This document shows, piece by piece, positions 7,080 through 34,670 of a stretch of DNA of 64,000 bases. The position numbers and the translations under genes are program-made. Each line of letters opens with the position of its first letter. Within the stretch, counting starts at the first letter, position 1. Below the pieces are notes generated by a model. It worked only from the letters and a program-made list of their open reading frames with translations. It made no database searches and had not been told where the DNA came from. Source of the DNA: Bacteroidota bacterium (GTDB lineage: Bacteria; Bacteroidota; Ignavibacteria; Ignavibacteriales; Melioribacteraceae); NCBI GenBank assembly GCA_018818165.1, contig JAHISP010000088.1, forward strand, positions 1 to 64,000. The letters run 5' to 3'.

Positions 7080-7092
7080 TATTTAATACCTT

Positions 7093-11398: not shown

Positions 11399-11413
11399 AA
11401 ACTTAAAAATATC

Positions 11414-11462
11414 TTGACATGATTATAAGTATTTATTATTTTTGAATCATAATTCAAAAATA
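11414..11462 (+). promoter_or_regulatory. Promoter and overlapping operator of the TetR gene
   Basis: TTGACA (11414-11419), 17 bases, then TATTTTTG (11437-11444) fits the Bacteroidota pattern TTG...TAnnTTTG. A perfect 11-bp inverted repeat, TATTTTTGAAT and ATTCAAAAATA separated by CATA, runs from 11437 to 11462, so it covers the -7 element and start point. A repressor bound there would shut the promoter, as expected for autoregulation by the TetR protein encoded nine bases further on. Confidence 0.75.
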
Positions 11463-11470
11463 AAAATGTT

Positions 11471-12058: not shown

Positions 12059-12068
12059 AATTTTTGTA

Positions 12069-12094
12069 GTATTATGAATAATGATTCAAAAAAC
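12069..12094 (+). promoter_or_regulatory. Second copy of the TetR-type operator (imperfect)
   Basis: GTATTATGAAT, AATG, ATTCAAAAAAC has the same arm length, the same 4-bp spacer and the same TGAAT/ATTCA core as the palindrome at 11437-11462, with mismatches only in the outer arms. It lies 85 bp before the outer-membrane protein gene at 12179. Confidence 0.55.
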
Positions 12095-12178
12095 AATATT
12101 TACAATATGAAACTATAATAAAATAAAACAAGTAAATATTATTCAAAATATAATTAACAATAAATTATGAGGTAAATC

Positions 12179-12712: not shown

Positions 12713-12736
12713 AATTAAATAACAATCTATTTTATG

Positions 12737-12780
12737 AATCATACTTATTTTGTGGTAATAGAATAAGTATGATTTTAATA
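12737..12780 (+). terminator. Hairpin terminator after the small barrel gene
   Basis: A perfect 13-bp inverted repeat, AATCATACTTATT (12737-12749) and AATAAGTATGATT (12762-12774), encloses a 12-base loop and is followed by TTAATA. The stem is AT-rich and the T run weak, so it may act partly by stabilising the 3' end of the transcript. Confidence 0.6.
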
Positions 12781-12901
12781 TATACCTAAATATCAAAAAC
12801 ATTAATGAAATTGAAATAATATTTAAATCAAAGCTAGATGCATTTTGTTCGTATTCTAACGCCACCATTGTAATCCTAAATTTTCAAGAAAGCATAAAAA
12901 G

Positions 12902-12924
12902 TATTTACATAAAAGATGTAAATA
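12902..12924. promoter_or_regulatory. Palindrome upstream of the propeller kinase gene
   Basis: TATTTACAT and ATGTAAATA form a perfect 9-bp inverted repeat around AAAAG, 39 bp before the kinase start. The size suits a dimeric regulator's operator. The binding protein is unknown. Confidence 0.35.
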
Positions 12925-12963
12925 TTATTATCTTTTAGCTTCTAAAAATTATTTTCAATTATT

Positions 12964-15963
12964 GTGAAGCAAACACATTTACTTTTACTTTTATTTACGC
13001 AAATTATTTTTGCTCAAAATAATTTAAAAGATTTATCATTTCAATATTTAACAATCAACGAAGGTCTATCGCAAAACACTGTTTTAGCAATTGCTCAAGA
13101 TAGCACTGGTTATGTTTGGTTTGGAACAAAGGATGGACTTAACAGATATGACGGATATTTATTTAAACAATTTTATAGTGATTTCAAAGATTCTAACAGC
13201 CTATCCTCAAACGAAATAACTGCACTTGATGTTACTCCAGATGGAATTCTCTGGATTGGAACGAACGGAGGACTCAATTCATATAATCCTAATAATGGAA
13301 AAATTACACAATATTATCATGAAGAAAATGATATTAATTCACTTTCTGATGATTTTATTAATGTAATTAAACACAACTTAAAAGGTGATTTGTTTATTGG
13401 AACTGATAAAGGGTTTTCAATTATCTCTGCTGATAAGAAAATTAAATCCTACAATATATTAGGAGATGGTAAAGATGCATTAATTTCTGCAATTGTAATG
13501 GATTTTAAGGGAAATTTATGGATTGGTGGAACAAATTCTCTTTCAAAATTTGATATTAAATCAGAAAAATTTACACACATAAATCTGCATCCAGAATCTA
13601 TATCCAAAAAAGAAAAAGTAGTTGTGCAGAGCCTATTATTTAAAAATGATAAAGTATTGTGGGTAGGAACTCGTTTTGGTTTAATAGAATATGATATTGT
13701 AGATAATAAGGTAGTAGAAAATTTGCAAAACAAAATTGAATTTAATGCCAATATTAGAGAATATTTACGTAATTTATTTAAGGACAAAGAAGGTAACATT
13801 TGGTTTGCAGAGTGGAGTGGATTAAGGATTTATGATAACAAAAATGACGAATTTATTTCCTATAACTCGATTGAAAAGGATTTATTGAATAACAGTTCTA
13901 TTAATGCAATTCTTGAAGATAAATCTGGAGTTATTTGGATTGGTACTTCATTTGGTGGAGTAAATTATTTTGATCCTACAAAACAAAAATTCAAAACTAT
14001 AAATATAAAATCAGGGTTATCCAATAATATTGTTAGTTCTATATCCGAAGACAACAAAGGGAATCTCTATATTGGTACAATTGGTGGCGGGTTGAATAAA
14101 ATAAATAAAGCAAATAATAAAATTGAAGCAATTGCTGAAATAAGCAATAAGCTAATTAGAGTTACGCATATAAATGGTGACGACCTCTGGATTGGCGATT
14201 GGGGAAATAATCTAATTCATTATTCTCTTTCCACAAAAAAAACACATAGTATTAATTTGGCTAATTTAGGCTTTAATTTAAGTGCTAATAATGCAATTAA
14301 AGATATTGAATTTGACAAAGATAAAAATCTTTGGGTGGCTACCTCACTAAATGGAATATTTAAATTTAATCAAAATGGCGATGCTGAAAATTACCCTTTA
14401 AATTCAATAAGCCAAAACAAGCCAAGAAGAATGAGGGAAATATTTTTTGATAGAAATAATGTTTTATGGGCTATAACCGACAAAGGTCTCAGTAAATATG
14501 ATAAAGAATTGAATTCATTCAATTATATTGATTTTAATGATGATAGCTGCATCAAAAAAACAAAAATGATTTCAGTATATGTAGACGAAAACAATATTTT
14601 CTGGATTGGAACTTATGGAAATGGATTACTTAAAATTGATATAGAAAATAGTACTTGTAAAAATTATAAAGCAAACGAAAATGTTCCTAATAATGTGATT
14701 TATGCAGTTCTGCCCGATTCCACTGGAAATTTATGGTTAAGTACAAATAATGGAATTGCAGAATTTGACACTGCAACAGCTCGAAGCAATCACTTTAATA
14801 TTGGGGATGGTTTACAAAGCAATGAATTTAATGACAATGCTTTTTACGAAACTTCTGATGGAGCTTTGATATTTGGTGGAATTTCAGGATTAAATATCAT
14901 TCGTCCAAATGAAATTAATATAAATAAATATATTCCACCAATAGTTATAACCAACATCAAATTTCTAAATTCATCATTGGCAAACAAAAATTATTTAGAT
15001 GCAATTGAAAATAATACAATTACATTAAATTATTATCAAACGGATTTTAATATTGAATTTTCTGCTTTAAATTATTCACAACCACGCAAAAATAAATATG
15101 CATATAAACTTGAGCCAATTAATAATGACTGGATTTATCTAGCAAATGGAAGGTCACTAACTTTTACAAATTTAAAACATGGCAAATATAATTTAAAGAT
15201 AAAGGGCTCAAACAATGATGGTGTTTGGAACGAAAAAGGAACAGAGTTAAGTATTATTGTTCTTCCTCCATTTTGGGTTACCTGGTGGTTTGTTACAATT
15301 GTATTTTTAATTGTGGTGGGTATTATCTTTTTTGGAATTTATTTAAAAGCGCAATCAATAATAAAAGTGGAAAGACTTAGAACTAAAATTGCTAGCGATT
15401 TACACGATGATGTTGGATCATCCCTTACAAAAATTTCAATGAATGCTTCAATGCTCAATTATGATGTTGAGCCAGAAAAAATAAAAAATAGAATCGCAAA
15501 TTTATCCGCACTAAGTCAAGAAGCGATTTCAATGATGAGCGATATTGTTTGGTCAATTGATGCTCGCAACGATTCTCTTCAAGACTTAATTGACAGGATG
15601 AAAAATTTTGCTTTTAATCATGTTGCTGAAAAGGAAATTGATATTAATTTTGATGCAAATTGTAATGTTAATTCTAAGAAATTAAAAATAAATATCCGAC
15701 AAAATCTTTATCTAATCTTTAAAGAAGCTTTAAACAATGCTGTAAAATATTCCGAATCCAAAAGAATTGATGTTTCAATTTTAGCAAATAACGAAGGCTT
15801 AACATTATTATTAATAGATAATGGAATTGGATTAAAAAAACATGATGTAAACAAAGGAAATGGATTTAGGAATATGAAAATGCGTGCTGAAAGAATTAAA
15901 GCACAACTTAATTTTATAGATGAAAATGGGCTTTCTGTATCACTAGTAATTAAAAAACTATAA
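12964..15963 (+). CDS. Two-component sensor kinase with periplasmic beta-propeller (Reg_prop/Y_Y_Y)
   Basis: The 999-residue protein starts with a signal peptide (to FAQ, about residue 18). Residues 25-650 consist of repeated propeller blades of the form D..G..WIGT..GL..Y, at least a dozen, for example VWFGTKDGLNRYD and LWIGTNGGLNSYN. A Y_Y_Y domain follows (about 670-760), then one membrane helix (about 768-792). The cytoplasmic HisKA_3 part has DLHDDVGSSLTKIS (H814) and an HATPase with NNAVKYS and DNGIGL. Unlike Bacteroides hybrid systems, the receiver is not fused but encoded next door. The ligand is outside the cytoplasm. Start is a GTG at 12964; no better codon is seen upstream of the signal peptide. 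Confidence 0.9.
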   Translation: MKQTHLLLLLFTQIIFAQNNLKDLSFQYLTINEGLSQNTVLAIAQDSTGYVWFGTKDGLNRYDGYLFKQFYSDFKDSNSLSSNEITALDVTPDGILWIGTNGGLNSYNPNNGKITQYYHEENDINSLSDDFINVIKHNLKGDLFIGTDKGFSIISADKKIKSYNILGDGKDALISAIVMDFKGNLWIGGTNSLSKFDIKSEKFTHINLHPESISKKEKVVVQSLLFKNDKVLWVGTRFGLIEYDIVDNKVVENLQNKIEFNANIREYLRNLFKDKEGNIWFAEWSGLRIYDNKNDEFISYNSIEKDLLNNSSINAILEDKSGVIWIGTSFGGVNYFDPTKQKFKTINIKSGLSNNIVSSISEDNKGNLYIGTIGGGLNKINKANNKIEAIAEISNKLIRVTHINGDDLWIGDWGNNLIHYSLSTKKTHSINLANLGFNLSANNAIKDIEFDKDKNLWVATSLNGIFKFNQNGDAENYPLNSISQNKPRRMREIFFDRNNVLWAITDKGLSKYDKELNSFNYIDFNDDSCIKKTKMISVYVDENNIFWIGTYGNGLLKIDIENSTCKNYKANENVPNNVIYAVLPDSTGNLWLSTNNGIAEFDTATARSNHFNIGDGLQSNEFNDNAFYETSDGALIFGGISGLNIIRPNEININKYIPPIVITNIKFLNSSLANKNYLDAIENNTITLNYYQTDFNIEFSALNYSQPRKNKYAYKLEPINNDWIYLANGRSLTFTNLKHGKYNLKIKGSNNDGVWNEKGTELSIIVLPPFWVTWWFVTIVFLIVVGIIFFGIYLKAQSIIKVERLRTKIASDLHDDVGSSLTKISMNASMLNYDVEPEKIKNRIANLSALSQEAISMMSDIVWSIDARNDSLQDLIDRMKNFAFNHVAEKEIDINFDANCNVNSKKLKINIRQNLYLIFKEALNNAVKYSESKRIDVSILANNEGLTLLLIDNGIGLKKHDVNKGNGFRNMKMRAERIKAQLNFIDENGLSVSLVIKKL

Positions 15964-16013
15964 TCACATGGTTATGGGATTGAAATGTTAAAACTAAAAT
16001 CTTATGTTGTAGT

Positions 16014-16637
16014 ATGATTTCAGTAGCTATAATAGAAGATATAAAAGACATAAGAAATTCTCTCAAAGAGTTTATTTCTATGCAATCTGACATGTTTTGT
16101 GCAGTGGCATCAGAATCGGTGGAAGAATTTCTTGAGGCTAACTTACAAGATACAGGGGTTGATGTATTGCTTCTTGATATTGATCTGCCTGGTATTTCTG
16201 GAATTAGTGGAATGAAATTTATAAAAGAAAAATATCCAGAAATTGATATTATTATGGTTACGGTTTATGAAGATCACGATAAAATTTTCCGCGCTTTAAA
16301 AGCTGGAGCTGCAGGATATCTGCTTAAAACTACTCCTTTTCCAAAACTAAGAGAAGCAATACTTGATATTAATTCTGGCGGTGCACCAATGGAACCAATT
16401 ATTGCTCGCAAAGTTATTGAGTATTTTAATTCAGAATCAAAATCAAACAATGAAAAATCGGCTCTTACTTCCAAAGAAAGCCAAATTGTTAATTATCTAG
16501 TTGACGGTTTTACATACAAAAAAATTGCAATTACTTTGGATAATTCCATAGAAACAATTCGGCATCATGTAAAAAACATTTACAAAAAACTGCAAATAAA
16601 TTCTCGTACAGAACTTATTAAAAAGAAACTGAACTGA
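16014..16637 (+). CDS. NarL/LuxR-type response regulator
   Basis: The 207-residue protein has a receiver domain (residues 3-120) with the acidic pair near the N-terminus, phospho-acceptor D55 in LLLDIDLPG, the conserved Thr in VTVYED and Lys in LLKTT. The C-terminal LuxR-type helix-turn-helix (about 145-207) carries LTSKESQIVNYLVDGFTYKKIA and IRHHVKNIYKKL. It lies 50 bp after the HisKA_3 kinase, the kinase class that pairs with NarL-type regulators, so the two form a cognate pair. The next gene downstream, with a palindrome upstream of its promoter, is the obvious candidate target. Confidence 0.92.
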   Translation: MISVAIIEDIKDIRNSLKEFISMQSDMFCAVASESVEEFLEANLQDTGVDVLLLDIDLPGISGISGMKFIKEKYPEIDIIMVTVYEDHDKIFRALKAGAAGYLLKTTPFPKLREAILDINSGGAPMEPIIARKVIEYFNSESKSNNEKSALTSKESQIVNYLVDGFTYKKIAITLDNSIETIRHHVKNIYKKLQINSRTELIKKKLN

Positions 16638-16777
16638 TTACAGATTTAAATTTGCAATCCATTTTTTTCAAAATAAAAATAAAATCAAATATTTGTATTT
16701 AAATTTATTTTACTGTTTTTATAAATTATAATATTCAATAAATCTATTTTTGTGTTCAAAATCACGTATCCCACCTT

Positions 16778-16851
16778 ATCCCATATTCATGGGATTGAAA
16801 CTATCTTTTTATAGGCATAACTTGCTTACAGAAAATTACATTAAGTATAAA
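16778..16851 (+). promoter_or_regulatory. Predicted promoter and activator site of the giant-protein operon
   Basis: A perfect 7-bp inverted repeat, ATCCCAT, ATTC, ATGGGAT (16778-16795), is preceded by another TATCCCA half-site at 16767-16773. A promoter-like pair follows: TTGCTT (16822-16827), 18 bases, TATAAA (16846-16851). The palindrome centre would be near -70, a usual place for a NarL-type activator dimer. The other parts of the 288-bp gap 16638-16925 show only AT-rich sequence. Confidence 0.45.
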
Positions 16852-16925
16852 GTATCAAACAATATAGTTTATTCCATCTTGTTAAGAAGGGAAGATATTT
16901 AGTAAAAAATAATGGTGTAAATAAA

Positions 16926-19900
16926 ATGCGAAGAATATTATTTTTATTATTGCTGACATTTAGTTCAGTTTTTTCACAGAACACTAATTGGAGTTCTTTT
17001 ATTTCATTTCCAAATAATCCTTCTCCTTATTTCACCGATTGGGAAAGAAACCCAAATATTGGCAGTCTTAACATAAATTATCTGGGAACATCGCCAATTG
17101 AATTTTATTTTGAAATTATAATAAATATTGATGGCTATGGCGAAGCGATAAGAGGTCGCACAGATAATCGTGAATATTTATCTGGTCCTATGTCCGAAAT
17201 TTTAACATTTAATGACATTTCAGATTGGCAGAGCACAAAAACAAATTCAGATTTGGAGCGATTGGTCATTCAAACTGGGAAGTTGCCAGAATCAAATTAT
17301 TCAATTTGTGTTTCTACTTTTTCAACTAGTGGCGAATTACTTACAGAAACTTGCACAGATTTTGAAATATTATTACCAAATCCGCCACAATTATTATTAC
17401 CAGATGAGGAAGGTTCAATAGAAATTGCACAACCAAGTTTTATGTGGAATCCTGTTTCAACTCCATCAGATATTTTGGTGTATTATCATGTTAAAATTGT
17501 GGAAATTCTTGATGGGCAAACTGCATTTAGAGCATTTGAGGCAAACGTACCCATATTAGAAACTGAAGTTCAATATGAAAATATGTATACATATAGTTTG
17601 GACGACTACCCGCTTGAGCAAAATCATAATTATGCATGGCAAGTTCAAGCAACCAATAATGAAGGTGTTCCAATTGCATCAAATGATGGATATTCAGAAA
17701 TTTGGCAATTCACTTATGGAAATCCCAACAGCGAACTTCCAATAGATACTTTAACGCTAATTGAAAATTATGCATATCTATTTGATTTGAAACAACTAAA
17801 TATAACCGATAACACATCATTCATAAATCTTGATGGTTCGTGCCGAATGTTAATAAAAGGCACTGATGGAATTGACAAATATCTTGATGCATTTGCTCAA
17901 AATTTAATGTTACAAAAAGACAGTTATGAAAATCCAGTGTTTTTAGGTGGAAATATTATTGGTTCTATTTATGAAAAAATATTAGATAAGAGCTTAACGG
18001 GCGATTATTTTAAACCAACGGAGCTTGAATTTATTCCACCGCAGCAGTTATCATTTGCTGGTGAGTTTAATTTAGGTGACGAAAATGGAATTCCTTTAAT
18101 TGGAAGATTAAATTTTATAGATAACGAATTAATAGGAGAACTTACAGCAATTGGCGATGCTTCAACTCCAATGTTTTCAATAGGTGATGATTCATTTAAG
18201 TTAAATATTTCTTCAGTTGCTTTATCATTCCCAAATTTGGAAACAAGACTTGAAGGCAGTCTGTCAGTCTTTGGCACACAATCTAATTGCAGAGTTGATG
18301 AAATAACGCTTGAAAAAAATGGTGGTTTTTCTGCAAGTATTTCGTGCGATGTAATGCAAGAAATAGCTCTTTTACAAGGCTCTAATTTATTTAATATTAA
18401 TGTTAAAAGTATTAATGGAAAGATAAATGGTAACTTATTATCAAATAAACATGATTATAAAGTAGTTGTTGATGGTGGGTTACAGTTTAATGTTAATCCA
18501 GATAATCTTTTTGGAGCCGACCTTTCTTTTGAATTATCACCCAATAAATTTAAGTTGTTATCGTTTAACCCAAACGTAGATGTTGATGCATCAACTCTTG
18601 ATTTAGGTTGGCTTAAGTGGAATTTGAAAAATCTTAAGCTCAATAGTTTATCGTATGAAAATAAAATTTGGGATTTTGATTTGGCAATGGATGTTGATTT
18701 ATCATTCCCGGATTTTGGCGATAAAAAACTACCAACTATTACGGGTGTTTCTTTTACTCCAAAAGGCTTTGAATTTCCAGAAGTGAATTTCTCAAATTTC
18801 TCTATTCCAAAAATTGATTTTAAAGCATTTGAAATTGAAATGTTTGGAATATCCGCCCCAGCATTTATTTTTGATTTTAGCAAATGGAATCCTGGTTCAA
18901 TAGCACAAATGGCTTTTAATTGGAATGTTAAATTCAGTATGCCAAATCTACCTAATGGAACTGATGAAAATTTTAAATTTCCAAATTGGAATTTAAAAGC
19001 TAAAATTACAAATGGTAATTTTAATTTAATCCTTCCTGATATTGACTTTCCAAATGCGAAGAGTATAACTATCCCTGGCGGATTAGGATTTAACGTAAGT
19101 TCATTCTCTGGAAAACTAAATACTTCTTTCGATGGTTCAATTATGAGCTTTCTCCCAGATGTAAAAATTGGTGGAGATATTAGCCTTCCTGAAAGATTGA
19201 AATGTGACGGAGCAGAAGAAAACATTAAGCTAAGATCAATGATTACTCTTAATGGAAATGGCAGTATTAGTGGAATAATTGAAGATGTTGTTCCAAAATG
19301 CCCTATAAATATTGGTCTTGCTTCTCTTTATATGAAAAAATCCAAAATTGAATTTAAAAATGAAGACGGACAAAAGATTTATTTGGATGGCGAAGCCGCA
19401 GTTTCATTTACAGCTAAATCAAATCAAAAAGAAGTTGGAAAAATTTTAGTCATTTATGAATTAGTAAATAGCGAAATAATTAAAGCGGAAGGTGAAATTA
19501 AAGATAATTTTGTTTGGGATTTACCAAGTGAAAATCCAACATTTTCTTTTAATATTGCAGAAGCTAAAATTGGAAGAGGAAAACTTTTAATTGATGGAAG
19601 ATCAACATTACAACTGAGCAAAGATAAAGCAATTGGTGTTACATTCGATGATTTTACTATCAATTTGGATGAATATACTATTGAAGATGGACAAGTAATT
19701 TTTGATGAGCCTTTTGCGATGGTTATTGACAATCTTGCGGATGATAATATTAATTTCAAAACTGTTTTAAGTGGTGATATTCCAAATACAGAAAGTTATT
19801 TATATTATACACTTCCCGAAAAAATTGCCCTAAATAAAAATGGGTTTACACTAAAAGGCAATAGTAAAGCGCAGTTAAAATATCAAGGAAAAGTATTAGG

Positions 19901-25900: not shown

Positions 25901-28900
25901 TAGTTTGCAAAATGGTATTAACTCAATTAATGCTTATCGTGAAAGAGTTTTTTCTGAATACCAAAAACTTAATACTAATATTGCAACTATCGAAAAGATA
26001 CTTAAGGGCAGAAATGGAAACTCAGGGACTCTTAAATTCTCACGCTCATACGCAAGTCTTGTTGAATATATACACAGTACATATTTGCAACAGTATATGT
26101 ATTACAAACAGATTAAAACCTGGTCAACAAATAGATACGCTGAACTTCTGAACAGAGATAGTACTCCATTGTCTGTCGGTCAAATAATGCGAAATAAAGC
26201 TGTACGAATATTTGATAGAAATCCTAATGGATACATGGCTCTTAAATTAATAAATAATGGTAGAGTGGAAGCTATCTCAAGACTAAAAGGTGATGATGAA
26301 GCCACGTGGCGTTCAGCTGGTGGAGCTGAAAATATGGTTTGGGAAAATAATTCATCTTTACCTTTGGCAGAATTCAGAACTTGGGCTATAAACCGTTCAA
26401 CAGAAATTGGAATTAGTTTGTGGAAAGATATTGCAGGCCTTGGACTTCAAGAATTAAAAAATACTAGCAGATCTATGATTAACAATGTTGAATGGGCAAA
26501 ACGTGAACATATTGAAAATGCAGGAGCAGTTCAAGCAGAATTTACTGATAAGATAAACACATTGTATAGTACCTTAGGTTCATTGTCAGAAACTAAATAT
26601 GATATTGTTAAAAAACTTATTGATTGGGAAGATAACTCTTTTCAACCACGATTAATTGATAGAACAGGTAAAGTAATAAAATCTGCAAGAAAGGTTCAAC
26701 TTGAAAATGCAATGGAATTACTTGAACAAAAAATGACAGTTCCTACTATAACACAGTTGGAAGCTGTAAATTATGATTTGGGAATTTGTGCATATACCAA
26801 TGTTAGATGGAATGTATCTGGACCAAGAAATACATATGCAACTTTCCAAGTGGATTTTGAAAGTGAGCAACCTCATATTAATAGTCAAGGTTATCAATCA
26901 ATCGGAAATAAAATTAACCTTAACTTATTTTATGCGCCATTAGTTAATCAAACAACATTTGGAGAAACAACATTTCACTTAAAGGCAGTTAACGAAGTTG
27001 GATATTCAATTCATAGATCTCTTACTTACAGACCAACTTTCTCTAATACGGCAACTGAAAGACTTGGAGATATAACACAAACAACTTATGATGTTGATAG
27101 AACACCACCCACAATGTCAAGAATAGATTTTCCTTATCACTTTTTGACACGTGCTTTAAATGATCATCCAACAGGATGGGATGACTTTTACAATATGCAT
27201 TTTGTTGGAGATTCTTCAGTTGTTAGCGCGGAATGGACTGGGAACGACGATGAAAGTGGTGTTCAAGAGTATAGATACAAATTAGTTAAAACACAGCGCC
27301 CTGGAAGTGCTGGTTTTCAATTTATTGAAAATGCTGATGATTTAGAATTAAATCCAGGTGTGAATCCATTTGGAAATACAGGAGACGATACTCCACCAAA
27401 CCCATATAGTAATTGGACAAATAACTTTGGAAGAACCAATGTAGTAATTAACGGACTTGATATGCAGAATGGGGAATACTACCAATTAAAAGTTGCTGCA
27501 AAAAATGGTGATGGTTATTGGATGGAAAAACCACAAGGTTTGAGTGATTATTTATTTGTTGATTTAGTTCCACCACCAGCACCAGTTGCACGTCCATTGC
27601 CAGCTCACCCAGCTGTTAATGTGCCTGCAACAAGTACTATTAGACATGAGATTGATTTACCACCAATGTCAATGAGGCAATTTGGGAACAATCTTGTTAA
27701 AATGAACGATAATTCGGAAGCTTATCTTATTATAAATTATTCAATACCTACAGATGAATATACAGGTTCACCGTTTGCGAAAGAGCTTATGGTTTCAAAA
27801 GTTGGTCATCCAGAAATAGCGTCCGATTGGGTTACTAATTTTGGTAACCGCATTGATAATGCCTACTTCCCGGAATTAAATAATATGCTTAATTACATCG
27901 ATTCATTTTATGTAGATATTAGAACTTATGACTTAGCAAGAAATAGAAGTAATCTGTTAAGATTTAAAATGCAACCATTTGATAACACTGCACCAAGCAG
28001 GCCCCTTGTAAACTTTGCATATTCTTCAAATTATCAAAGAGCATATATTGTATTTGAATCTCAATCTGATGATGAACAGTCTGGGATTCAATATTATGAA
28101 GTTGGGCTTGGTTCAACCAGAGCAAATATCAGTTTTGATGATGGAATTAAATTTTATCCAAATGACATAGCTAATAACCAAACTGTTCTAATGCCAGAAT
28201 TGCCTTTTAGAGATAGAACTATATTTGCTGTGAGAGCCGTTAATGGTCAAGGAACTCGTGGAGCAATTTGTTATACGGGATATTTTCTTCAAGATGAAAC
28301 ACCTCCAGTAACTCCAACAGTTACATTAGGAATAAATAACATTGCGGCAAGAGGTAATTTCTTATCAATTAGTTTTGGAAATCTTGTTGATAACCAAACT
28401 GGAATAAAAAATGTTCAATATATGCTTTATAAAAAAGTTTCTGGAAGTGATAGTTGGACTTCAGTTATTTATTGGCGTGCAACAGATAATCTTAATGGTA
28501 CATCAATTAATCTTGGCGACTATGGAATAGGGAACAATATTGACTTGAAAGTTGAAGTGCGTAGTATGAATACTGTTGGATTATTATCTACTGTTGGTAG
28601 CTCAGAAATAAGAATTCCTGATACTAGTCGTCCTTTTGCCCCTACTGTTACAATTAATTCTGGATCCCCAGCAAAAAATGATCCTCCAGCTGTTGGTTTA
28701 AGATTTGGTAATTTAGTTGATCCAGAATCGGGCATTCAAAAAGTTGAATATAAAATTGAGAAAGCTAATGACCGTTACGATATTACTTATTCATCGGTAA
28801 AAGGTTGGACAAGCAATGGAACAAAAACCACAAAGGTACTTTCATATTCAACATTAAGATTGAATGCAGGAGATTACATTAAAGTTACGGTTCGAAGTTA

Positions 28901-28955
28901 TAATAATGATGGGCTTATTTCAGAGGATGTTACAAGAACACATACTTTGAATTAA
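16926..28955 (+). CDS. Giant exported repeat protein (4009 residues), unknown function
   Basis: A signal peptide (MRRILFLLLL...SVFSQ) marks it for export. Residues 25-265 look like Ig/fibronectin-type domains, ending with AWQVQA and WQFTYG. From about 430 to 1890 a unit of some 725 residues occurs twice. The matching blocks include LPERLKCDG (near 755) with LPEYLRCDG (near 1483), and LEIAYLQIK (near 1055) with REIAYLRIK (near 1790). Four cysteines recur in register (455, 474, 760, 792 and 1177, 1197, 1488, 1521). The fragment after 1890 resembles the start of a third unit. Residues about 2440-2780 are Gly- and aromatic-rich strands, 2790-3270 mainly helical and charged, and about 3390-4009 hold several modules opening with T/D-x-P-P, as in Ig/FN3 arrays. 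No T9SS C-terminal domain or catalytic motif is seen. The reading frame is unbroken. Confidence 0.85.
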   Translation: MRRILFLLLLTFSSVFSQNTNWSSFISFPNNPSPYFTDWERNPNIGSLNINYLGTSPIEFYFEIIINIDGYGEAIRGRTDNREYLSGPMSEILTFNDISDWQSTKTNSDLERLVIQTGKLPESNYSICVSTFSTSGELLTETCTDFEILLPNPPQLLLPDEEGSIEIAQPSFMWNPVSTPSDILVYYHVKIVEILDGQTAFRAFEANVPILETEVQYENMYTYSLDDYPLEQNHNYAWQVQATNNEGVPIASNDGYSEIWQFTYGNPNSELPIDTLTLIENYAYLFDLKQLNITDNTSFINLDGSCRMLIKGTDGIDKYLDAFAQNLMLQKDSYENPVFLGGNIIGSIYEKILDKSLTGDYFKPTELEFIPPQQLSFAGEFNLGDENGIPLIGRLNFIDNELIGELTAIGDASTPMFSIGDDSFKLNISSVALSFPNLETRLEGSLSVFGTQSNCRVDEITLEKNGGFSASISCDVMQEIALLQGSNLFNINVKSINGKINGNLLSNKHDYKVVVDGGLQFNVNPDNLFGADLSFELSPNKFKLLSFNPNVDVDASTLDLGWLKWNLKNLKLNSLSYENKIWDFDLAMDVDLSFPDFGDKKLPTITGVSFTPKGFEFPEVNFSNFSIPKIDFKAFEIEMFGISAPAFIFDFSKWNPGSIAQMAFNWNVKFSMPNLPNGTDENFKFPNWNLKAKITNGNFNLILPDIDFPNAKSITIPGGLGFNVSSFSGKLNTSFDGSIMSFLPDVKIGGDISLPERLKCDGAEENIKLRSMITLNGNGSISGIIEDVVPKCPINIGLASLYMKKSKIEFKNEDGQKIYLDGEAAVSFTAKSNQKEVGKILVIYELVNSEIIKAEGEIKDNFVWDLPSENPTFSFNIAEAKIGRGKLLIDGRSTLQLSKDKAIGVTFDDFTINLDEYTIEDGQVIFDEPFAMVIDNLADDNINFKTVLSGDIPNTESYLYYTLPEKIALNKNGFTLKGNSKAQLKYQGKVLGDLSTDFSNDFAFSLKPFKVISGKCDIIFKDNKVAYFNEDGFFPDINYFLNRVIPDKIPLPTLEIAYLQIKRDDNLLVNVNAEGNSTRFSTREGEPVELVFPSMQFDLAEAPKILVNFSIAFDDGTGEVTDGFIRGVIPEESIHSFDLTRVGIPYTIYSIYYGNLDGTTKFRLAGKAKLFDTEVACQDSLILTLSQNGMLEGRVSCDIDQIISLIPDSDKLNLHLNNISGQFNADLLTRNFDFNITLDSDLRFNLGEGKSWGVWTLLEQNQNGLELVDSRMDDVAIPKIDLEQFKIGFNNFVLGRLDYNSTPDANGFTGWDFEFGMDLNLSIPSLGLEIPNIPNVTLNRTGFHTMDRISIPSFSDSLAFQFEGIELKPLAFRMPKLDFNWFNPLGGEGNNWDFNIDFEINFPNMEGASGSMRYPHLTLLDANFLNGKLIGNIDPIDFDLLDGLKLNFGDGFGFSLTRISGRLFDDNGNQGVDFNFNGHLDLPEYLRCDGEQTTLDLTETTFSLNSSGQISGIINNFVPRCPIDLGFGQFQVTSSSINFSVSDSGQVAILDMTGDLVVNTGDGNSVTANGVLQMDLLTGQIIDGSITIEEQFVWAIPNDKPVLRFTINRAVLDRNGLTINGDSDLLLPGGQTRNARFENFNFDFRKFKVNSGRVEINADFAIKIALEDGEVVWSVISANTPLTENQTAKIGFTSNLVLDADGLSTNGEAIAAIRWDEDPAHQFGNLKIRYTNDFKFSLRPFMVSEGRADLIHVQGEAENIIATLTHDGLNLGDIFGLIPVPEIIPLPDREIAYLRIKSGNRVLVQTETVDAGLRIYSTEENPTSLVLPALQIEGREVDSIPTVFDVVVNPATGQIVSGEITLARQDSASILNLRDRGIPADIFKIHYDKNDGLSADAQVDLPNILSGMPIKMRKLRFNRNGLAGTVNLGTYSEVYPRNVLPTLDFANLGSQAIITLEGLDVSFGENNSVGFSGKFIPLMFVHDRDTTKVQYAANWNNVEHKFTFSFDFADGEVFDFGIGTFTPGSIGDNPALQLTLSEEDFELLLSGEFRANQFGDDFALGIEGLKITKNNVSAEAISKSAANPISFKLFNSDFRIFDKDVNNKAIRFTYADNVLKLILSGDITLFGKADNKVTFSNFTIGTDGTFSIGQANFLNSDLVIVDNYIAINNVGISNNKLAVGGWIKLPEPVGNDTQFNFGFNLDANGTITADNRIGNKIVLINEPQRIGNPAETEYDFWKAKFDLTYLALELNFANISNSSVQMVSDIYWDNNRNKRVSLGNKSNINSIVPGLEITFAGDVNWGSASVNGNFVNFDEDMFKVKVNTVQLTSDRNNNLTFGIGGEFGLNFDAVQGGLNLADFQFNKTGIVNIGRITGGTLTIEDVGSLTLNNIGYSDSQTRIWVKGGESPGAASGSARADSTQITVNNYLSFGGEITIDGFGAAGVDRFLTYSTDNSYTLLVRNAHFEIEGTMSASMDLLYYTGDNGFMMRAGGSATIGDFSGSVVGKVAKINNKVSWGFFIQSDMRIDIVPIVITGVGGGFFYNPNADDILAVKRLANVSESNGKIAVQGGKFAIFLFGQAAIVSDVLIYGRVLITVTDRQFMLDGRVVVLDMENKIEGEIHLMVQWSPTFEAEGEIAIDIDVARIVKGTGRVGFYVYSTDQWAIYGESEIKLFNYLESSSEFFVGNSGFMLGMSSSVNYDLWIIEVGAGIDVKVWYMPGKSWGAYAKAWVKAEILWGVAKAKGWLQCALLGSEGNVYLYGQAGLEIHVLFTDWSGSAWAKISNGEVDGGRGSDSDMDALIAEAMGQSEAAEREMEDMKISIENRPDPGVSFSNDELRAAFATLTEWGSKYKYGNEIERHEAETFFNDLLAIEITDHYGYNPSRVSGESDLLRWNIDNVFKGQGAPDLTDFTEGNRSIQEAIDLYNEDKNALLPTFDEGFEIITQTSNEIDGNAVDPTAGTIFPQYRLDENGHYIISGQSSMNVDEDISNQNSVSLQNGINSINAYRERVFSEYQKLNTNIATIEKILKGRNGNSGTLKFSRSYASLVEYIHSTYLQQYMYYKQIKTWSTNRYAELLNRDSTPLSVGQIMRNKAVRIFDRNPNGYMALKLINNGRVEAISRLKGDDEATWRSAGGAENMVWENNSSLPLAEFRTWAINRSTEIGISLWKDIAGLGLQELKNTSRSMINNVEWAKREHIENAGAVQAEFTDKINTLYSTLGSLSETKYDIVKKLIDWEDNSFQPRLIDRTGKVIKSARKVQLENAMELLEQKMTVPTITQLEAVNYDLGICAYTNVRWNVSGPRNTYATFQVDFESEQPHINSQGYQSIGNKINLNLFYAPLVNQTTFGETTFHLKAVNEVGYSIHRSLTYRPTFSNTATERLGDITQTTYDVDRTPPTMSRIDFPYHFLTRALNDHPTGWDDFYNMHFVGDSSVVSAEWTGNDDESGVQEYRYKLVKTQRPGSAGFQFIENADDLELNPGVNPFGNTGDDTPPNPYSNWTNNFGRTNVVINGLDMQNGEYYQLKVAAKNGDGYWMEKPQGLSDYLFVDLVPPPAPVARPLPAHPAVNVPATSTIRHEIDLPPMSMRQFGNNLVKMNDNSEAYLIINYSIPTDEYTGSPFAKELMVSKVGHPEIASDWVTNFGNRIDNAYFPELNNMLNYIDSFYVDIRTYDLARNRSNLLRFKMQPFDNTAPSRPLVNFAYSSNYQRAYIVFESQSDDEQSGIQYYEVGLGSTRANISFDDGIKFYPNDIANNQTVLMPELPFRDRTIFAVRAVNGQGTRGAICYTGYFLQDETPPVTPTVTLGINNIAARGNFLSISFGNLVDNQTGIKNVQYMLYKKVSGSDSWTSVIYWRATDNLNGTSINLGDYGIGNNIDLKVEVRSMNTVGLLSTVGSSEIRIPDTSRPFAPTVTINSGSPAKNDPPAVGLRFGNLVDPESGIQKVEYKIEKANDRYDITYSSVKGWTSNGTKTTKVLSYSTLRLNAGDYIKVTVRSYNNDGLISEDVTRTHTLN

Positions 28956-29009
28956 TATTTAAGTTTAATATATCTAAACTAAGCAATACGATTGCTTATA
29001 GGAGAAAAA

Positions 29010-30971
29010 ATGAAAAAAACATATTTGATAATTTGGTTACTACTGTTATTAGTAATTTCATCAAATGCTCAAAAAAAGAAAGACTTTTTCACAATGGTTA
29101 AAGGAGATTCGTTAGCAATCTTTTTAACCGAGTCACCTTCAACAAATGAAGTTTATAATGTTTATCGTAAATCGGATACTGGCTATGTTTTACTTACAAA
29201 GGATGAACCAATTAGAGCAATAATTGACCCAACGGAAGCAAGAATTATTTTAGGCAACGATTGGGATTTAATTTCCAAAGCTGTTGATAGTAAAAATGAA
29301 ACTGATATTCTTCGTCAAATTAAATCAAAAACATTTCGGGGTGCTTTGCTTTCTTTTATTAGCAATAATGCAGCAAAAGTTAGTGGAAGATGGTTTGTTG
29401 ACCCTAATATTAAAATAGGAAATTCTTACACTTATAAAATTATTTTTGAAACAATGTCTGGAAAAGTTGTTGATAGCCTTGAAAAAAGTGTAAAAGCAGA
29501 TATGATAATTCCAAATGCTCCAACTAATCTTAAGCTCACTTCAGGAAATAGACAAATTAAATTAGAATGGAATTATCCCAAATGGTCTGGCGATTTTACT
29601 GATTTAGGATTTAGATACAATATCTATCGAAAAAAGGGAAATGGCGAATATAGCAAGGTAAATGAAAGTATTGTAATTAGAGATGATAATACAAATCCAG
29701 AATATGACGATTTATGGTTGGAAGAAGGGGTTAGTTACACTTATAAGATTACTATTTCTGACCCAATTGGCAACGAAAGCAAAGCTTCAAATGTGGCAGA
29801 AATATTACTTGAAGATAAAACTCCACCAGCAATTGTTTCAAATGTTATGTCCACTGCCTACAAAAATGGAATGAAAATCTCGTGGAATATGAGCACAGAA
29901 CTTGATGCGAAAGGATACAATGTTTATAGAGCAACAAGCCTAAAAGGAACTTTTGAAAAAATTAATAAAAAGCAAATACCTGTTGACATTCCTTTTTATC
30001 TTGACAGCACGGTAGCAGAAAAGAAACAATATTTTTATACTGTTAGTGCTGTTGATACAGTTGGCAATGTTGGAAAGCAAAGCAATCCAAATTCTGTTTA
30101 CTTGAAAGACCAATTTCCACCCGATGCACCAGCTAATTTAACTTATAAAATTGTTGATAGCAAAGTTCACCTAAATTGGAAAGCTGCTACTGCAAAGGAT
30201 TTGAATGGATACTATATTTATAAAAGCGAAAGAGCTACTGGAATGAAATCTCGAATCACTTTGTCTAGCTATAAAGGAATAAATTTTATTGATGCAGGTG
30301 ATAGTAAAAAGGGTTTTGGATATGGAGCCAAGTTCTATTACTCAATTACAGCAGTTGATAGTTCAAATAATGAAAGTGATTCTGTAAACATAATTGTTCA
30401 AATTCCCGACGTTGAACCACCATTTGCACCAACTAATTTTAATACTACATCAAAAGGAAATTATGTTTCAGTTGATTGCGGAATGAGTCCTTCGCAAGAT
30501 GCTAAAAATTATATCCTTTATAGAGCAGAGCCAAAGATGAAAGAAGCTAAGATAGCCGAATTTAATAAAGCTCCTTTTCAATTTATTGATACAAGTATTG
30601 CAAAAGGAAGAAACTACATTTATTCTGTAGTAGTAGTTGATACTGCTGGTAATATTAGTATTAGTGCAATTAAAGATACCGTTGAATTTACTGACTTTTC
30701 TCCTCCACCAGCACCACGTAATGTGAAAGCAAAAGTAATAAATGGAAAAGTTGAGCTAAAGTGGGTTAAGTCAATAGATTACGATATGAATGGATACAAT
30801 ATTTATCGATCAGATTATCCAACAGGTACTTTTATTTTGCTAAATAAAAATGTAGTTAAAGAAACCAAGTTTGTCGATTTAACAGGAAATAAAAATTATT
30901 ACTATAGAATTAAAGCAGTAGATACTTCTGGAAATGAAAGCAATTATGATGAAACAATTTCTCCAAAATAG
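29010..30971 (+). CDS. Exported protein with five fibronectin type III domains
   Basis: The protein has 653 residues, with a signal peptide ending near SSNAQ. An N-terminal region of about 150 residues without clear relatives is followed by five fibronectin-III-like repeats, each with the D..PP..P linker and an N-I-Y-R-type strand: RYNIYRKKG, GYNVYRA, GYYIYKS, NYILYRAE, GYNIYRSD. No catalytic or T9SS sorting motif is present. The frame extends six codons upstream, but GGAG five bases before the ATG at 29010 fixes the start. It begins 54 bp after the giant gene and overlaps the next gene, so the two products are probably made together and may bind each other or a shared surface ligand. Confidence 0.82.
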   Translation: MKKTYLIIWLLLLLVISSNAQKKKDFFTMVKGDSLAIFLTESPSTNEVYNVYRKSDTGYVLLTKDEPIRAIIDPTEARIILGNDWDLISKAVDSKNETDILRQIKSKTFRGALLSFISNNAAKVSGRWFVDPNIKIGNSYTYKIIFETMSGKVVDSLEKSVKADMIIPNAPTNLKLTSGNRQIKLEWNYPKWSGDFTDLGFRYNIYRKKGNGEYSKVNESIVIRDDNTNPEYDDLWLEEGVSYTYKITISDPIGNESKASNVAEILLEDKTPPAIVSNVMSTAYKNGMKISWNMSTELDAKGYNVYRATSLKGTFEKINKKQIPVDIPFYLDSTVAEKKQYFYTVSAVDTVGNVGKQSNPNSVYLKDQFPPDAPANLTYKIVDSKVHLNWKAATAKDLNGYYIYKSERATGMKSRITLSSYKGINFIDAGDSKKGFGYGAKFYYSITAVDSSNNESDSVNIIVQIPDVEPPFAPTNFNTTSKGNYVSVDCGMSPSQDAKNYILYRAEPKMKEAKIAEFNKAPFQFIDTSIAKGRNYIYSVVVVDTAGNISISAIKDTVEFTDFSPPPAPRNVKAKVINGKVELKWVKSIDYDMNGYNIYRSDYPTGTFILLNKNVVKETKFVDLTGNKNYYYRIKAVDTSGNESNYDETISPK

Positions 30972-32955
30972 GTTTGTAATTTTAATATTGATTCTATCGG
31001 TTAATTCGTTAGTTGCTCAAGATTTGTTTACAAATGGTGTTATTGAATATAATAACAAAAATTATAAAGAAGCTGCTGGTCAGTTTGAGAATTTTATTGC
31101 TTCAAATCCATTTGAAGTTGCTCCTTATGAGTATTTAGTTAACTGCTATATTGAACTTGGTGAAAATAATAAAGCGATTGAATTATTAGAAATTTCCACA
31201 AAGAAATTTTCTAATAATTCAAATTTAGTTAAAACACTTGGCAAGCTTTATGTGAACAATTATAATTTTGAAAAAGCCGAAAACTCATTTATTGATGCCC
31301 TTAAACTAGAGCCTAAAAAATCTGAAATAATTGGTTACTTGGCCAAAATAAATGTTAATATGGCTAAAATAGCATTTCAACAAAAAGATTTTAGAAAAGC
31401 TATAAGTAAAGCAAACAAGGCACTTCAATATGATGACAAAGATTATGAAGCATATATTCTCAAATCAAATGCTCAAATACAAATGGGAAATTTGCAAGAT
31501 GCAGAAAAAACTATTGATGCAGGATTGTTAAAAAATCCTAATAACGATCAATTACTTGTTGACAAATCATTATTGCAAATTAACCAAGAAAAATATGACG
31601 AAGCTATTAATTCGCTTTCCCCAGTTTGGAAAAGGAACACAGACAATTTACAAATTGGACTTCAATTAGGGCGGCTTTACAGAGGTAAAAACAAAATTAT
31701 TGAAGCCTTTGCTATTTACGATATTCTCTTGAAAAATAATCCTAAAGAAAGAACTGTTTATGATGAGATGTTGTATTACTTTTCCGCTACAGGAAAGGAA
31801 TCTGAAAAAAGAAAAATATACGATAAAATGGAAAAGGAATTTCCAGGTGATAAAGAAATTATTCTCGCAAAATTTAAAACGTATGTTAACGAAGGGCAAG
31901 ATTCATTAGCAATAATCATGTATTCAGATTTTATAAGTAGTAATCCAAAATCATATAAAGCCTATGCTGAGTTAGCTGAACTTTATTCAAAAAAGGAAAT
32001 GCCAGAAGAAGGAATTATTCTTATGAATAAAGCGTTATCTAATAATCTGAAAGAAAAGTCAGTATATTTTAATCTAGCAAAATTTTATCACAAAAGTAAT
32101 AAACTAGAAATAGCATTAAAAACTTATAAAGAATATTCTGAATTATATCCAAAGGATATAAGCACTTATTATGAAATTGGTTTAATTTATTCCGAAATAA
32201 ACAATCTTGATTTAGCAAAATTAAGCTTTAACAAAGCATTAGATATTGACCAAAATGATGCGCTTTCATTGGCGCAAATTTCTAGAATATTTGAATTGAC
32301 TGGTGATAATGAAAGCGCTAAAAAATATTATGTAGATGCTTTTATTCAAAATATAATTGCACTTCAGAAAATGCAGCAATCAATTATAAGTTCAATTAAT
32401 GAAACTGATAATTTGTCAAATATCAAAGTTGATAAAAATGTTGATAATGTTAAGCTTTATCAAGATAATGTTAATGAAGCTGAAAATTATTTAGTTAAAA
32501 ATCTTTCAAATAGTGAATACCTCGAAATGATTAATCGTGTTCGTTCACGTTATCCACAATCTTCTTTAGTCCTTTATTACATAGGACTTTATTATGAAAG
32601 AATAGGTGATTATAACTCCTCATTAAAATATTATGAACAGGTTATTTCAAGAAGTTCAAAAGTGGAAGATGCTCATACTCATATGGCAGAAATATTTTAT
32701 AAGAAAGGGGAAAAAGCCAAAGCAATATTAAGCTATAAAAGGGCGCTATCAATTAATCAAGAAAATAAAGAAATATATAAAAAACTAATTGAATTACATC
32801 GTGAAGATAATATTCTAGATAAGTTATGCGATGAATGGTTAAATGTTTATTCTGCACAACCCCACAATAAATTATTGAAGGAATTTTTAATTGTAGCATT
32901 GCATAAAGCAAATAGAATAGCAGAAGCGAAAGAAATATTAAATAATAGAGAATAA
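30946..32955 (+). CDS. Exported tetratricopeptide-repeat protein
   Basis: The protein has about 669 residues, with a signal peptide (FVILILILSVNSLVAQ) and then TPR helices along nearly the whole length. Clear units include YKEAAGQFENFIASNPFEVAPYEYL, KAISKANKALQYDDKDYEAY and YEQVISRSSKVEDAHTHMAEIFYKKGEKAKA. TPR arrays are protein-binding scaffolds; being exported, this one would work in the periplasm. The start lies inside the end of the preceding gene (ATG at 30946 or 30949), and its stop shares one base with the next start (TAATG). This indicates strict co-expression with the barrel protein. Confidence 0.88.
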   Translation: MMKQFLQNRFVILILILSVNSLVAQDLFTNGVIEYNNKNYKEAAGQFENFIASNPFEVAPYEYLVNCYIELGENNKAIELLEISTKKFSNNSNLVKTLGKLYVNNYNFEKAENSFIDALKLEPKKSEIIGYLAKINVNMAKIAFQQKDFRKAISKANKALQYDDKDYEAYILKSNAQIQMGNLQDAEKTIDAGLLKNPNNDQLLVDKSLLQINQEKYDEAINSLSPVWKRNTDNLQIGLQLGRLYRGKNKIIEAFAIYDILLKNNPKERTVYDEMLYYFSATGKESEKRKIYDKMEKEFPGDKEIILAKFKTYVNEGQDSLAIIMYSDFISSNPKSYKAYAELAELYSKKEMPEEGIILMNKALSNNLKEKSVYFNLAKFYHKSNKLEIALKTYKEYSELYPKDISTYYEIGLIYSEINNLDLAKLSFNKALDIDQNDALSLAQISRIFELTGDNESAKKYYVDAFIQNIIALQKMQQSIISSINETDNLSNIKVDKNVDNVKLYQDNVNEAENYLVKNLSNSEYLEMINRVRSRYPQSSLVLYYIGLYYERIGDYNSSLKYYEQVISRSSKVEDAHTHMAEIFYKKGEKAKAILSYKRALSINQENKEIYKKLIELHREDNILDKLCDEWLNVYSAQPHNKLLKEFLIVALHKANRIAEAKEILNNRE

Positions 32956-34670
32956 TGATGAAACAAAATTTACACCTTTACTTTTTAGCATTTATCTTTT
33001 TAAATTTTAATTTAATTTTTGCACAAGAACATGATTCTTCTGAGGTTGATTTGAGTATTAACTCCAAGCTATCTGAGATGATTTCTCCTTCAATATTTTC
33101 TATAAGTGGTGATGCTGGTGCCTATGGGGAATTATATTCTACTTCACGCGATATAGCTAGACGACCAACTTCAACTGGACGATTATTTTTGCGTCCTACT
33201 TTTACTTTTCTAAATAATTTTTCCATTTCGTTCGATTTGTTTGTTTCAACCGAAGGAAATGATGCGCGACAGCAAATTAATAGATTTGCTCTCCATCCAG
33301 AGTGGAGTTGGGGAAAGGCGCATGTTGGTGATTTTAATCATAAATTTTCCGACTATTCTCTTAATGGAATTAATATTCGCGGCGGCGGAGTTGAAATAAA
33401 TCCAGGTTGGTTTCGTTTTCAAGCAATTGGCGGACAAACTCGTCGTTCAATTGTAGCTTCGCCATATTCTTCGGTTTACAGTCAAAACATGGGAGCAATA
33501 AAAATAGGAATTGGAAATGAAAGAACTTCATTTTTTGATATAAATATTGTTCTTGCCAGAGATGATAGCAATTCCGTTCCTAAAAGTACGTTTATTGTTG
33601 ATACTACAGGTGCTGGAGGAAATCCGCAGGTTGGCATAACTCCACAAGAAAATATTTTGCTTGGGTTTAATACAGATTTAAAAATATTAAAAAATATTCT
33701 AAGATTTAGAGGTGAAGCAACAGCATCTTTATTTACGCAAAATGTATATGCTGATGTTGCAGAAATAGATGGAGTTCCTTCTTTTTTTAATGATTTGTTT
33801 ACTTTGAGAAATTCTTCAAATGTTGATTATGCGTATAAAGGAGCGCTAGATTTCAAATATGATTTTTTCAATTCATCATTAAAATATGAAGTTATTAATC
33901 CTGGATTTAGATCACTTGGAATGACATCAGTTATAAATGATAAGAAAAAATATGGAGCTATGATGGGGTTCCGAATGTTTGATAATATTTTAACATTTCA
34001 ACTAAGATATGATGCGCAAAACGATAATTTACTAAATCAAAAGAAATTTACGCTTAAAAGAAACACATTCGGATTCAATGCAGTAGTACGTCCAATTCAA
34101 AGTCTTTCAATAATGCTTAATGTAATTCAAAATAAAATGTTTAACGACTCTGCAAGTGATACATTAAAAATTGATGGTAAAGTTTCAACATTTGCAACTA
34201 ATTTATCCTATCAATTTCCAGCATTTGGATTAAGAAACTCGGCTATGCTTGGCTATTCACATCAAATATCTACAAATTATAGCTTTTATCTTGGCGGTAA
34301 TAACAATATAACAGTAAAAAATATTTTTGGAAGTATTAGCACTACAATTAATCAAATATGGTCAGTAGCTCCTGGATTTACAGCAATAGTTATAGATTCT
34401 TGGACCGGAGCCACAAATCAAACTTTGTCATTTAATATGAGAATAAATGGAAGATTTTTCCAGGCAAAATGGAATAATGCCCTTACTGTTTCAATGTCAA
34501 ATTCGGATTTCACAAAAGTTGTTCAACTAAATTTGCAAAGTGATTATCGAATTACTAATTCTGATATGTTAAAACTGAAGGTTAGATATTCTTTAACAAA
34601 TTATTCTTCTGGTACTCTATCAAATTTTTGGGAAAATATTGCAAGTCTTAACTATGTGCATAGATTGTAA
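32955..34670 (+). CDS. Outer-membrane beta-barrel protein, partner of the giant-protein operon
   Basis: The 571-residue protein has a signal peptide (to FAQ, about residue 23) followed by many amphipathic strands: RLFLRPTFTFLNNFSISFDLFVS, WGKAHVGDF, GAIKIGIGN, DLKILKNILRFRGEATASLF, GFNAVVRPIQSLSIMLNV. It ends with the aromatic strand NIASLNYVHRL. Length and pattern suit a barrel of 16 or more strands. I do not recognise the family. Start overlaps the TPR gene stop, making a four-gene unit: giant protein, FN3 protein, TPR protein, barrel. A role as channel or anchor for the giant protein is inference. Confidence 0.75.
   Translation: MMKQNLHLYFLAFIFLNFNLIFAQEHDSSEVDLSINSKLSEMISPSIFSISGDAGAYGELYSTSRDIARRPTSTGRLFLRPTFTFLNNFSISFDLFVSTEGNDARQQINRFALHPEWSWGKAHVGDFNHKFSDYSLNGINIRGGGVEINPGWFRFQAIGGQTRRSIVASPYSSVYSQNMGAIKIGIGNERTSFFDINIVLARDDSNSVPKSTFIVDTTGAGGNPQVGITPQENILLGFNTDLKILKNILRFRGEATASLFTQNVYADVAEIDGVPSFFNDLFTLRNSSNVDYAYKGALDFKYDFFNSSLKYEVINPGFRSLGMTSVINDKKKYGAMMGFRMFDNILTFQLRYDAQNDNLLNQKKFTLKRNTFGFNAVVRPIQSLSIMLNVIQNKMFNDSASDTLKIDGKVSTFATNLSYQFPAFGLRNSAMLGYSHQISTNYSFYLGGNNNITVKNIFGSISTTINQIWSVAPGFTAIVIDSWTGATNQTLSFNMRINGRFFQAKWNNALTVSMSNSDFTKVVQLNLQSDYRITNSDMLKLKVRYSLTNYSSGTLSNFWENIASLNYVHRL

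What the first reader, a model, noticed from the sequence alone, without database searches (positions are those of the whole stretch)
12964..34670. Unrecognised envelope system: propeller two-component pair controlling a giant-protein / FN3 / TPR / barrel operon
Seen in sequence: a signal-peptide-bearing 4009-residue protein, a five-FN3 exported protein, an exported TPR protein and a large outer-membrane barrel, joined by a 54-bp gap, a gene overlap and a one-base stop/start overlap. Directly upstream lie a HisKA_3 propeller kinase and its NarL partner. Known: gene overlaps mean stoichiometric co-production, and HisKA_3/NarL pairs act together. Inference: the four form one envelope machine with the TPR protein as periplasmic scaffold and the barrel as anchor or exit for the giant protein, which lacks a T9SS tag. 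I know of no described system with this composition. This is the strongest novelty candidate in the window.
Basis: partly seen in the sequence, partly recalled or inferred. Interest (0 to 1): 0.8.

Follow-up and report, generated by a model that had tools for sequence, protein, structure and literature searches.

The report
TANFOR-type surface-protein cassette with dedicated barrel
Four neighbouring genes make a very large exported protein, two helper proteins and an outer-membrane pore; the same set recurs in several bacterial phyla and looks like a dedicated, so far undescribed way of placing giant proteins, relatives of a known toxin class, in or on the outer membrane.

Summary
The 4009-aa exported protein, FN3 protein, TPR protein and outer-membrane barrel are there, with the stated junctions. 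The four form a real, widely conserved cassette. In the order, the FN3, TPR and barrel genes accompany the giant at every contiguous locus. Complete cassettes also occur in other Bacteroidota families and in Zixibacteria and Gemmatimonadetes MAGs. The kinase/NarL pair is not part of it: the two closest relatives lack it and it is sporadic elsewhere.

The system is not wholly unrelated to known ones. The giant's first ~275 residues are a divergent TANFOR domain, the N-terminal domain of a published class of Bacteroidetes polymorphic toxins with unknown export (hhalign 99.8%, E 1e-29). The barrel has no family model. It lies within 20 kb of a TANFOR-like gene at 100 of 119 loci (2.3 expected), co-occurs in 86 of 90 genomes, and is fused to the TANFOR-like domain in seven genomes. 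Four Gemmatimonadetes genomes with the cassette have no T9SS C-terminal signal, and three have no SprA, so the published T9SS hypothesis may not be the whole story.

Best reading: a dedicated outer-membrane docking or export port for TANFOR-type passengers. The giant is a toxin-less passenger whose C-terminal region diverges fast. Export itself is inferred.

The parts
16926..28955 (+). Giant passenger, 4009 aa, signal peptide, no T9SS tail, no database family
   Evidence: homologues of 3800-4150 aa in 11 of 64 genera of the order-level sample and outside it
16983..17750 (+). Residues 20-275: divergent TANFOR-family N-terminal domain (NTD)
   Evidence: hhalign to TANFOR-positive proteins 99.8%, E 1.1e-29; the only part shared by most passengers with other bodies
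18213..22601 (+). Residues ~430-1892: two tandem units of about 730 aa
   Evidence: self-BLAST E down to 3e-32
24180..25295 (+). Residues ~2419-2790: 22-24 long, mostly amphipathic antiparallel strands, then a helix
   Evidence: AlphaFold2 model of residues 1700-2830, pLDDT 73, pTM 0.37; strand amphipathicity
25296..28952 (+). Residues 2791-4009: helical stretch and Ig/FN3-like C-terminal domains, fast-diverging
   Evidence: 36-49% identity against 68-78% in NTD, body and strand region for the two closest homologues
29010..30971 (+). Exported FN3 protein: N-terminal FN3-like unit with insertion, then five FN3 domains
   Evidence: next to the giant at all loci that reach it; also next to most passengers with other bodies
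30934..32955 (+). Exported TPR protein with conserved C-terminal LCDEWL...ALHKA segment
   Evidence: 17 of 17 contiguous cassettes in the order, on the opposite strand after the barrel in five
32955..34670 (+). Outer-membrane barrel, about 24-26 strands, no Pfam/NCBIfam family
   Evidence: family in 123 of 395 genomes of the phylum sample
12964..15963 (+). Propeller histidine kinase (Reg_prop, Y_Y_Y, HisKA_3); neighbour, not part of the cassette
   Evidence: absent at the closest homologous loci
16014..16637 (+). NarL-type response regulator; neighbour, not part of the cassette
   Evidence: a 59% identical regulator precedes a giant only in G030

Best explanation
The four genes encode a TANFOR-type outer-membrane docking and display system. 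The giant, FN3 and TPR proteins carry N-terminal signal peptides and would enter the periplasm by Sec (read from the sequence). The giant's TANFOR-family N-terminal domain is the docking module that pairs it with the dedicated barrel, helped by the FN3 protein (inferred from phylum-wide linkage and natural fusions). The barrel acts as anchor or exit port, so the body and the fast-changing C-terminal Ig-like domains reach the cell surface, somewhat like an inverse autotransporter split into separate genes (inferred). The TPR protein, found only with the ~4000-aa passengers, would be a periplasmic chaperone or assembly factor for them (inferred). The giant carries no recognisable toxin and most likely acts as a surface adhesin or contact structure (inferred).
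For: Cassette conserved at every contiguous locus of the order, as barrel-giant-FN3-TPR in families f31, f32, f49, and in Zixibacteria and Gemmatimonadetes MAGs. NTD homologous to TANFOR. Passengers with quite different bodies share only the NTD and still sit beside barrel and FN3: the barrel goes with the NTD, not with a given body. 100 of 119 barrels within 20 kb of an NTD gene against 2.3 expected, 83 genomes in 28 families. NTD and barrel fused in one 863-1016-aa protein in seven genomes of four families, NTD first, which by barrel topology puts it at the periplasmic side. Canonical TANFOR loci with SprB/CTD neighbours carry the same barrel. Four Gemmatimonadetes with the cassette have no T9SS tails and three no SprA. 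The C-terminal 1200 aa diverge much faster than the rest.
Against: No complex was modelled and no export shown. The giant itself is not detected by TIGR02542. The body is strongly amphipathic and could be membrane- or lipid-associated, staying in the envelope. The window's own genome has T9SS, so T9SS export is not excluded there. The Gemmatimonadetes genomes are MAGs of unstated completeness.
Confidence: 0.6

Rival explanations
1. T9SS exports the giant without a classical tail, as Jana et al. 2020 proposed for TANFOR proteins, and the barrel only anchors it afterwards, as PorP/SprF-like barrels do for type B substrates.
For: The window's genome encodes SprA; the eight Bacteroidota genomes tested beside it all have SprA; canonical TANFOR loci include SprB/CTD genes; PorP-like anchoring is published (PMC9143113).
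Against: No T9SS tail on the giant; cassette present in four Gemmatimonadetes genomes without any TIGR04183 tail, three of them without SprA. The barrel matches no PorP/SprF model in NCBIfam.
Confidence: 0.22
2. The giant is not exported but is a periplasm-spanning or membrane-embedded amphipathic beta structure, for example a lipid-carrying groove, with the barrel as its outer-membrane end.
For: Long runs of strands with one hydrophobic face; best Foldseek hits are ApoB100 and LptD.
Against: TM-scores only 0.12-0.22 and pTM 0.37, so the hits show topology at most; no inner-membrane anchor was seen; the same barrel family serves passengers with unrelated bodies; rapid C-terminal divergence suggests exposure.
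Confidence: 0.12
3. A polymorphic toxin in the strict sense, with an unrecognised toxin in the giant's C-terminus.
For: TANFOR-family N-terminus and variable C-terminal region.
Against: The C-terminus is a string of Ig/FN3-like repeats with no toxin family; no immunity-like small gene follows, the next genes are FN3, TPR and barrel. C-termini diverge gradually rather than being swapped.
Confidence: 0.06

Closest known systems
TANFOR-domain polymorphic toxins (TIGR02542; Jana, Salomon and Bosis 2020, PMC7073777)
   Same: Homologous N-terminal domain, signal peptide, large size, FN3-rich neighbourhood; the same barrel family lies at canonical TANFOR loci.
   Different: No toxin, no immunity gene; ~4000-aa largely beta body; a TPR partner. 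The passages read of that paper list SprB, Fn3, PKD and CTD neighbours but no barrel.
T9SS type B CTD substrates with PorP/SprF-like anchors (PMC9143113)
   Same: Large surface protein encoded with a dedicated outer-membrane barrel.
   Different: No C-terminal T9SS signal; docking appears to be N-terminal; barrel about 24-26 strands and of another family; found in genomes without T9SS tails.
Inverse autotransporters (intimin/invasin, type Ve; from my own knowledge)
   Same: N-terminal attachment at the outer membrane followed by Ig-like domains towards a variable C-terminus.
   Different: Barrel is a separate gene in most cases, with about twice as many strands, and with FN3 and TPR partners.
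Slam / type XI secretion
   Same: TPR domains and an outer-membrane barrel act together.
   Different: TPR and barrel are separate proteins; TPR_Slam only E 3.7e-4, below cut-off; the giant shows no lipoprotein signal.

Membership tests
TANFOR polymorphic toxins | N-terminal TANFOR domain (TIGR02542 cut-off 67 bits) | tested here: not met
   No TIGR02542 hit for the window protein at E<=1; nothing in the phylum sample reaches the cut-off
TANFOR polymorphic toxins | Homology of the N-terminal domain to TANFOR domains | tested here: met
   hhalign 99.8%, E 1.1e-29 over 265 columns; 7 of 18 family members match TIGR02542, best 3.4e-8
TANFOR polymorphic toxins | C-terminal toxin domain, with immunity gene if antibacterial | tested here: not met
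   No toxin family in the giant or in ten other passengers scanned with Pfam; next gene is FN3
TANFOR polymorphic toxins | Sec signal peptide | tested here: inconclusive
   By eye: MRRILFLLLLTFSSVFSQ; no predictor was available
T9SS substrates | C-terminal sorting domain (TIGR04183/TIGR04131) | tested here: not met
   No hit at E<=1
T9SS substrates | T9SS present in the host | tested here: inconclusive
   SprA in own genome; absent from 3 of 4 Gemmatimonadetes with the cassette, none of the 4 has tails
Chaperone-usher or MtrB-type barrels | Fold and sequence relatedness of the barrel | tested here: not met
   Foldseek hits with TM-scores below 0.5 for the query; no PDB sequence relative
Slam / T11SS | TPR plus 14-strand barrel in one protein | tested here: not met
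   Separate genes, more strands
Propeller two-component regulators | Reg_prop, Y_Y_Y, HisKA_3 and a NarL partner | tested here: met
   but not conserved with the cassette

The most novel reading that the evidence does not exclude
The barrel, the FN3 protein and the TANFOR-family N-terminal domain form a T9SS-independent outer-membrane export and display system, spread over Bacteroidota, Zixibacteria, Gemmatimonadota and probably Calditrichota, that delivers both TANFOR toxins and toxin-less 4000-6800-aa surface proteins: a secretion system not yet described.
Probability: 0.4. Interest if true: 0.9.

Novelty: new variant of a known kind. Interest (0 to 1): 0.72.

Why it matters
How TANFOR polymorphic toxins cross the outer membrane is open; the published suggestion is T9SS. 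A barrel and an FN3 protein that travel with the TANFOR-family domain across 28 families, with the barrel fused to it in seven genomes, and that occur in genomes without T9SS tails, give a concrete, testable candidate for the missing outer-membrane partner. It also gives a first functional frame for a family of 4000-6800-aa proteins without database entry in several phyla.

Tried and rejected
DUF6603 was my first guess for the giant's body; Pfam did not list it and no paper was found. No PDB sequence relatives for barrel, body or NTD. Control by the two-component pair was rejected as a feature of the system on synteny. Promoter/terminator scans before the giant and after the barrel gave nothing above shuffles. 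TIGR02542 in the family of G326 gave only 3 of 200 genomes: that model is too narrow, which is why a home-made NTD profile was used. An identical 12-mer (ATGGGATTGAAA) before the regulator and before the giant is weak (5 sites with up to one mismatch against 1.2 expected) and was not pursued. ApoB100/LptD fold hits are kept only as a hint because of low TM-scores.

Full report
CHECK OF THE OBSERVATION. The window is contig C40 of a 4.88-Mb genome. Pfam and NCBIfam recognise the kinase, the regulator, the FN3 domains and the TPRs, and nothing convincing in the giant or the barrel. The barrel is predicted as about 24-26 strands with mean pLDDT 80. The giant has no T9SS tail at E<=1. It holds two tandem units of about 730 aa.

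THE FOUR GENES ARE ONE UNIT. A search of 146 related genomes with giant residues 2101-3300 found homologues in 16 genomes and 11 of 64 genera. Neighbourhoods show the FN3 gene after the giant at every locus that reaches it. All 17 loci contiguous through the barrel have FN3, TPR and barrel. In five of them the TPR gene has moved to the opposite strand behind the barrel, which argues for function rather than simple operon inertia. The genome G097 holds three copies. G002, of the same genus, has none, so the distribution is patchy.

THE REGULATORS ARE NOT PART OF IT. In G001 and G004 the giant directly follows genes 92% identical to the window's carboxylase and OadB genes at 1056-4649. The block 4708-16637 with both kinases and the regulator is missing there. 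Of 13 homologous loci with at least about 2 kb of upstream sequence, three have such regulators near (G097 twice, G030 once). Control of the operon by this pair is therefore possible in the window but not a feature of the system.

LINK TO TANFOR. The barrel profile hits 123 of 395 genomes spread over the phylum. At 18 of 20 sampled loci the gene next to, or near, the barrel begins with a domain matching the giant's first ~275 residues; most of these proteins share nothing else with the giant. Seven of 18 such domains match NCBIfam TIGR02542, TANFOR. The window's own domain does not by itself, but profile against profile the two groups match over their full length (99.8%, E 1.1e-29). [quoted passage not shown] In Flavobacteriaceae-like genomes (G432, G404, G322, G520) FN3, TANFOR-like and barrel genes stand in one cluster; the G432 cluster also holds SprB/CTD and PKD genes, as in the published neighbourhoods. 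Having no family model, the barrel would be invisible to a domain-based neighbourhood analysis.

STRENGTH OF THE BARREL-NTD LINK. With separate profiles of both on the same 395 genomes (listed matches only), 100 of 119 barrels lie within 20 kb of an NTD gene, against 2.3 expected, and 86 of 90 genomes with either have both (Fisher p 2.6e-82). One caution: the NTD alignment was built from barrel neighbours, so it favours such genes, and the p value is not corrected for relatedness. The TANFOR model, which is independent of the barrel, gives the same picture: 9 of its 10 phylum hits lie within about 12 kb of a barrel hit. Co-localised pairs occur in 83 genomes, 50 genera and 28 families. In seven genomes of families f1, f3, f11 and f16 the NTD and the barrel are one protein of 863-1016 aa, NTD first, mostly beside other NTD passengers or an FN3 gene. 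Such fusions are classical evidence of physical association, and an N-terminal extension of an outer-membrane barrel lies in the periplasm (general knowledge).

DISTRIBUTION. Full-length giants with barrel, FN3 and TPR also occur, in the order barrel-giant-FN3-TPR, in families f31, f32 and f49, with relatives in f28 and f44 and passengers up to about 6400 aa. A scan of named genomes gave Melioribacteraceae and Ignavibacteriales, and also MAGs labelled candidate Zixibacteria, Gemmatimonadetes and Calditrichia. One Zixibacteria and two Gemmatimonadetes loci carry giant, FN3, TPR and barrel in the same order as the window; a short Zixibacteria contig shows FN3-TPR-barrel and a short Calditrichia contig TPR-barrel. 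The TPR protein was found with ~4000-aa giants and not with the shorter passengers.

T9SS. The window's genome has SprA. Four Gemmatimonadetes genomes carry an NTD passenger of 3746-6807 aa, FN3 and barrel. None has a T9SS sorting tail, and three have no SprA, while a Zixibacteria genome searched in the same call has at least 150 tails. They are MAGs of unstated completeness, so absence is not proof, but the pattern speaks against a general need for T9SS.

THE GIANT ITSELF. The model of residues 1700-2830 is almost all beta at moderate confidence (pLDDT 73, pTM 0.37). From 2419 to 2790 it shows 22-24 long strands, many with one hydrophobic face, followed by a helix. Foldseek lists ApoB100, LptD and ushers, with TM-scores too low to mean more than topology. 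Against the two closest homologues the N-terminal domain, body and strand region are 68-78% identical, the last 1200 residues only 36-49%, as expected for a surface-exposed end.

MECHANISM. Shown: conservation, linkage, fusion, signal-peptide-like N-termini (by eye), no tail, no toxin family. Inferred: NTD docks to the barrel; the FN3 protein assists; the TPR protein assists the giant; the C-terminal part is outside. I put 0.6 on this docking/display model, 0.22 on T9SS export with barrel anchoring, 0.12 on an envelope-bound amphipathic or lipid-linked structure, 0.06 on a strict toxin.

VERDICT. A real, conserved, undescribed cassette; part of the wider TANFOR class by homology, but failing the toxin criteria. 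New variant of a known kind, with a fair chance that the barrel/FN3/NTD module is a new outer-membrane export system.

Noticed in passing
window 37357-63247: Probable alginate/uronate utilisation locus: TonB-dependent receptor, several right-handed-helix lyase-like proteins with T9SS tails, an alginate-lyase-like protein, KDPG aldolase, KDG kinase, GntR-type regulator and SDR reductase (by inspection of the translations).
   Followed up: no
window 4708-8655: Minus-strand set of multihaem cytochrome, cytochrome b and two YeeE/YedE-type transporters, one fused to a rhodanese-like domain; looks like sulfur-compound respiration or transport (by inspection).
   Followed up: no
window 4708-16637 against G001:C16 and G004:C238: About 12 kb between the OadB gene and the giant gene is absent from the two relatives, where the giant follows OadB directly: an insertion here or a deletion there.
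   Followed up: partly
window 15974-15985 and 16789-16800: Identical 12-mer ATGGGATTGAAA in the gap before the regulator and in the gap before the giant; resembles the end of some CRISPR repeats, weak statistics.
   Followed up: partly
G157:C7, G176:C39, G263:C91, G689:C10: Passengers of about 6400-6800 aa with the same N-terminal domain, among the largest in the family.
   Followed up: partly
L159, L160, L161, L162, L163, L164, L165: Single proteins of 863-1016 aa that join the TANFOR-like domain to the barrel.
   Followed up: yes
L034 (G030:C234): Two giant genes in tandem separated by an FN3 gene and a NarL-type regulator 59% identical to the window's.
   Followed up: no
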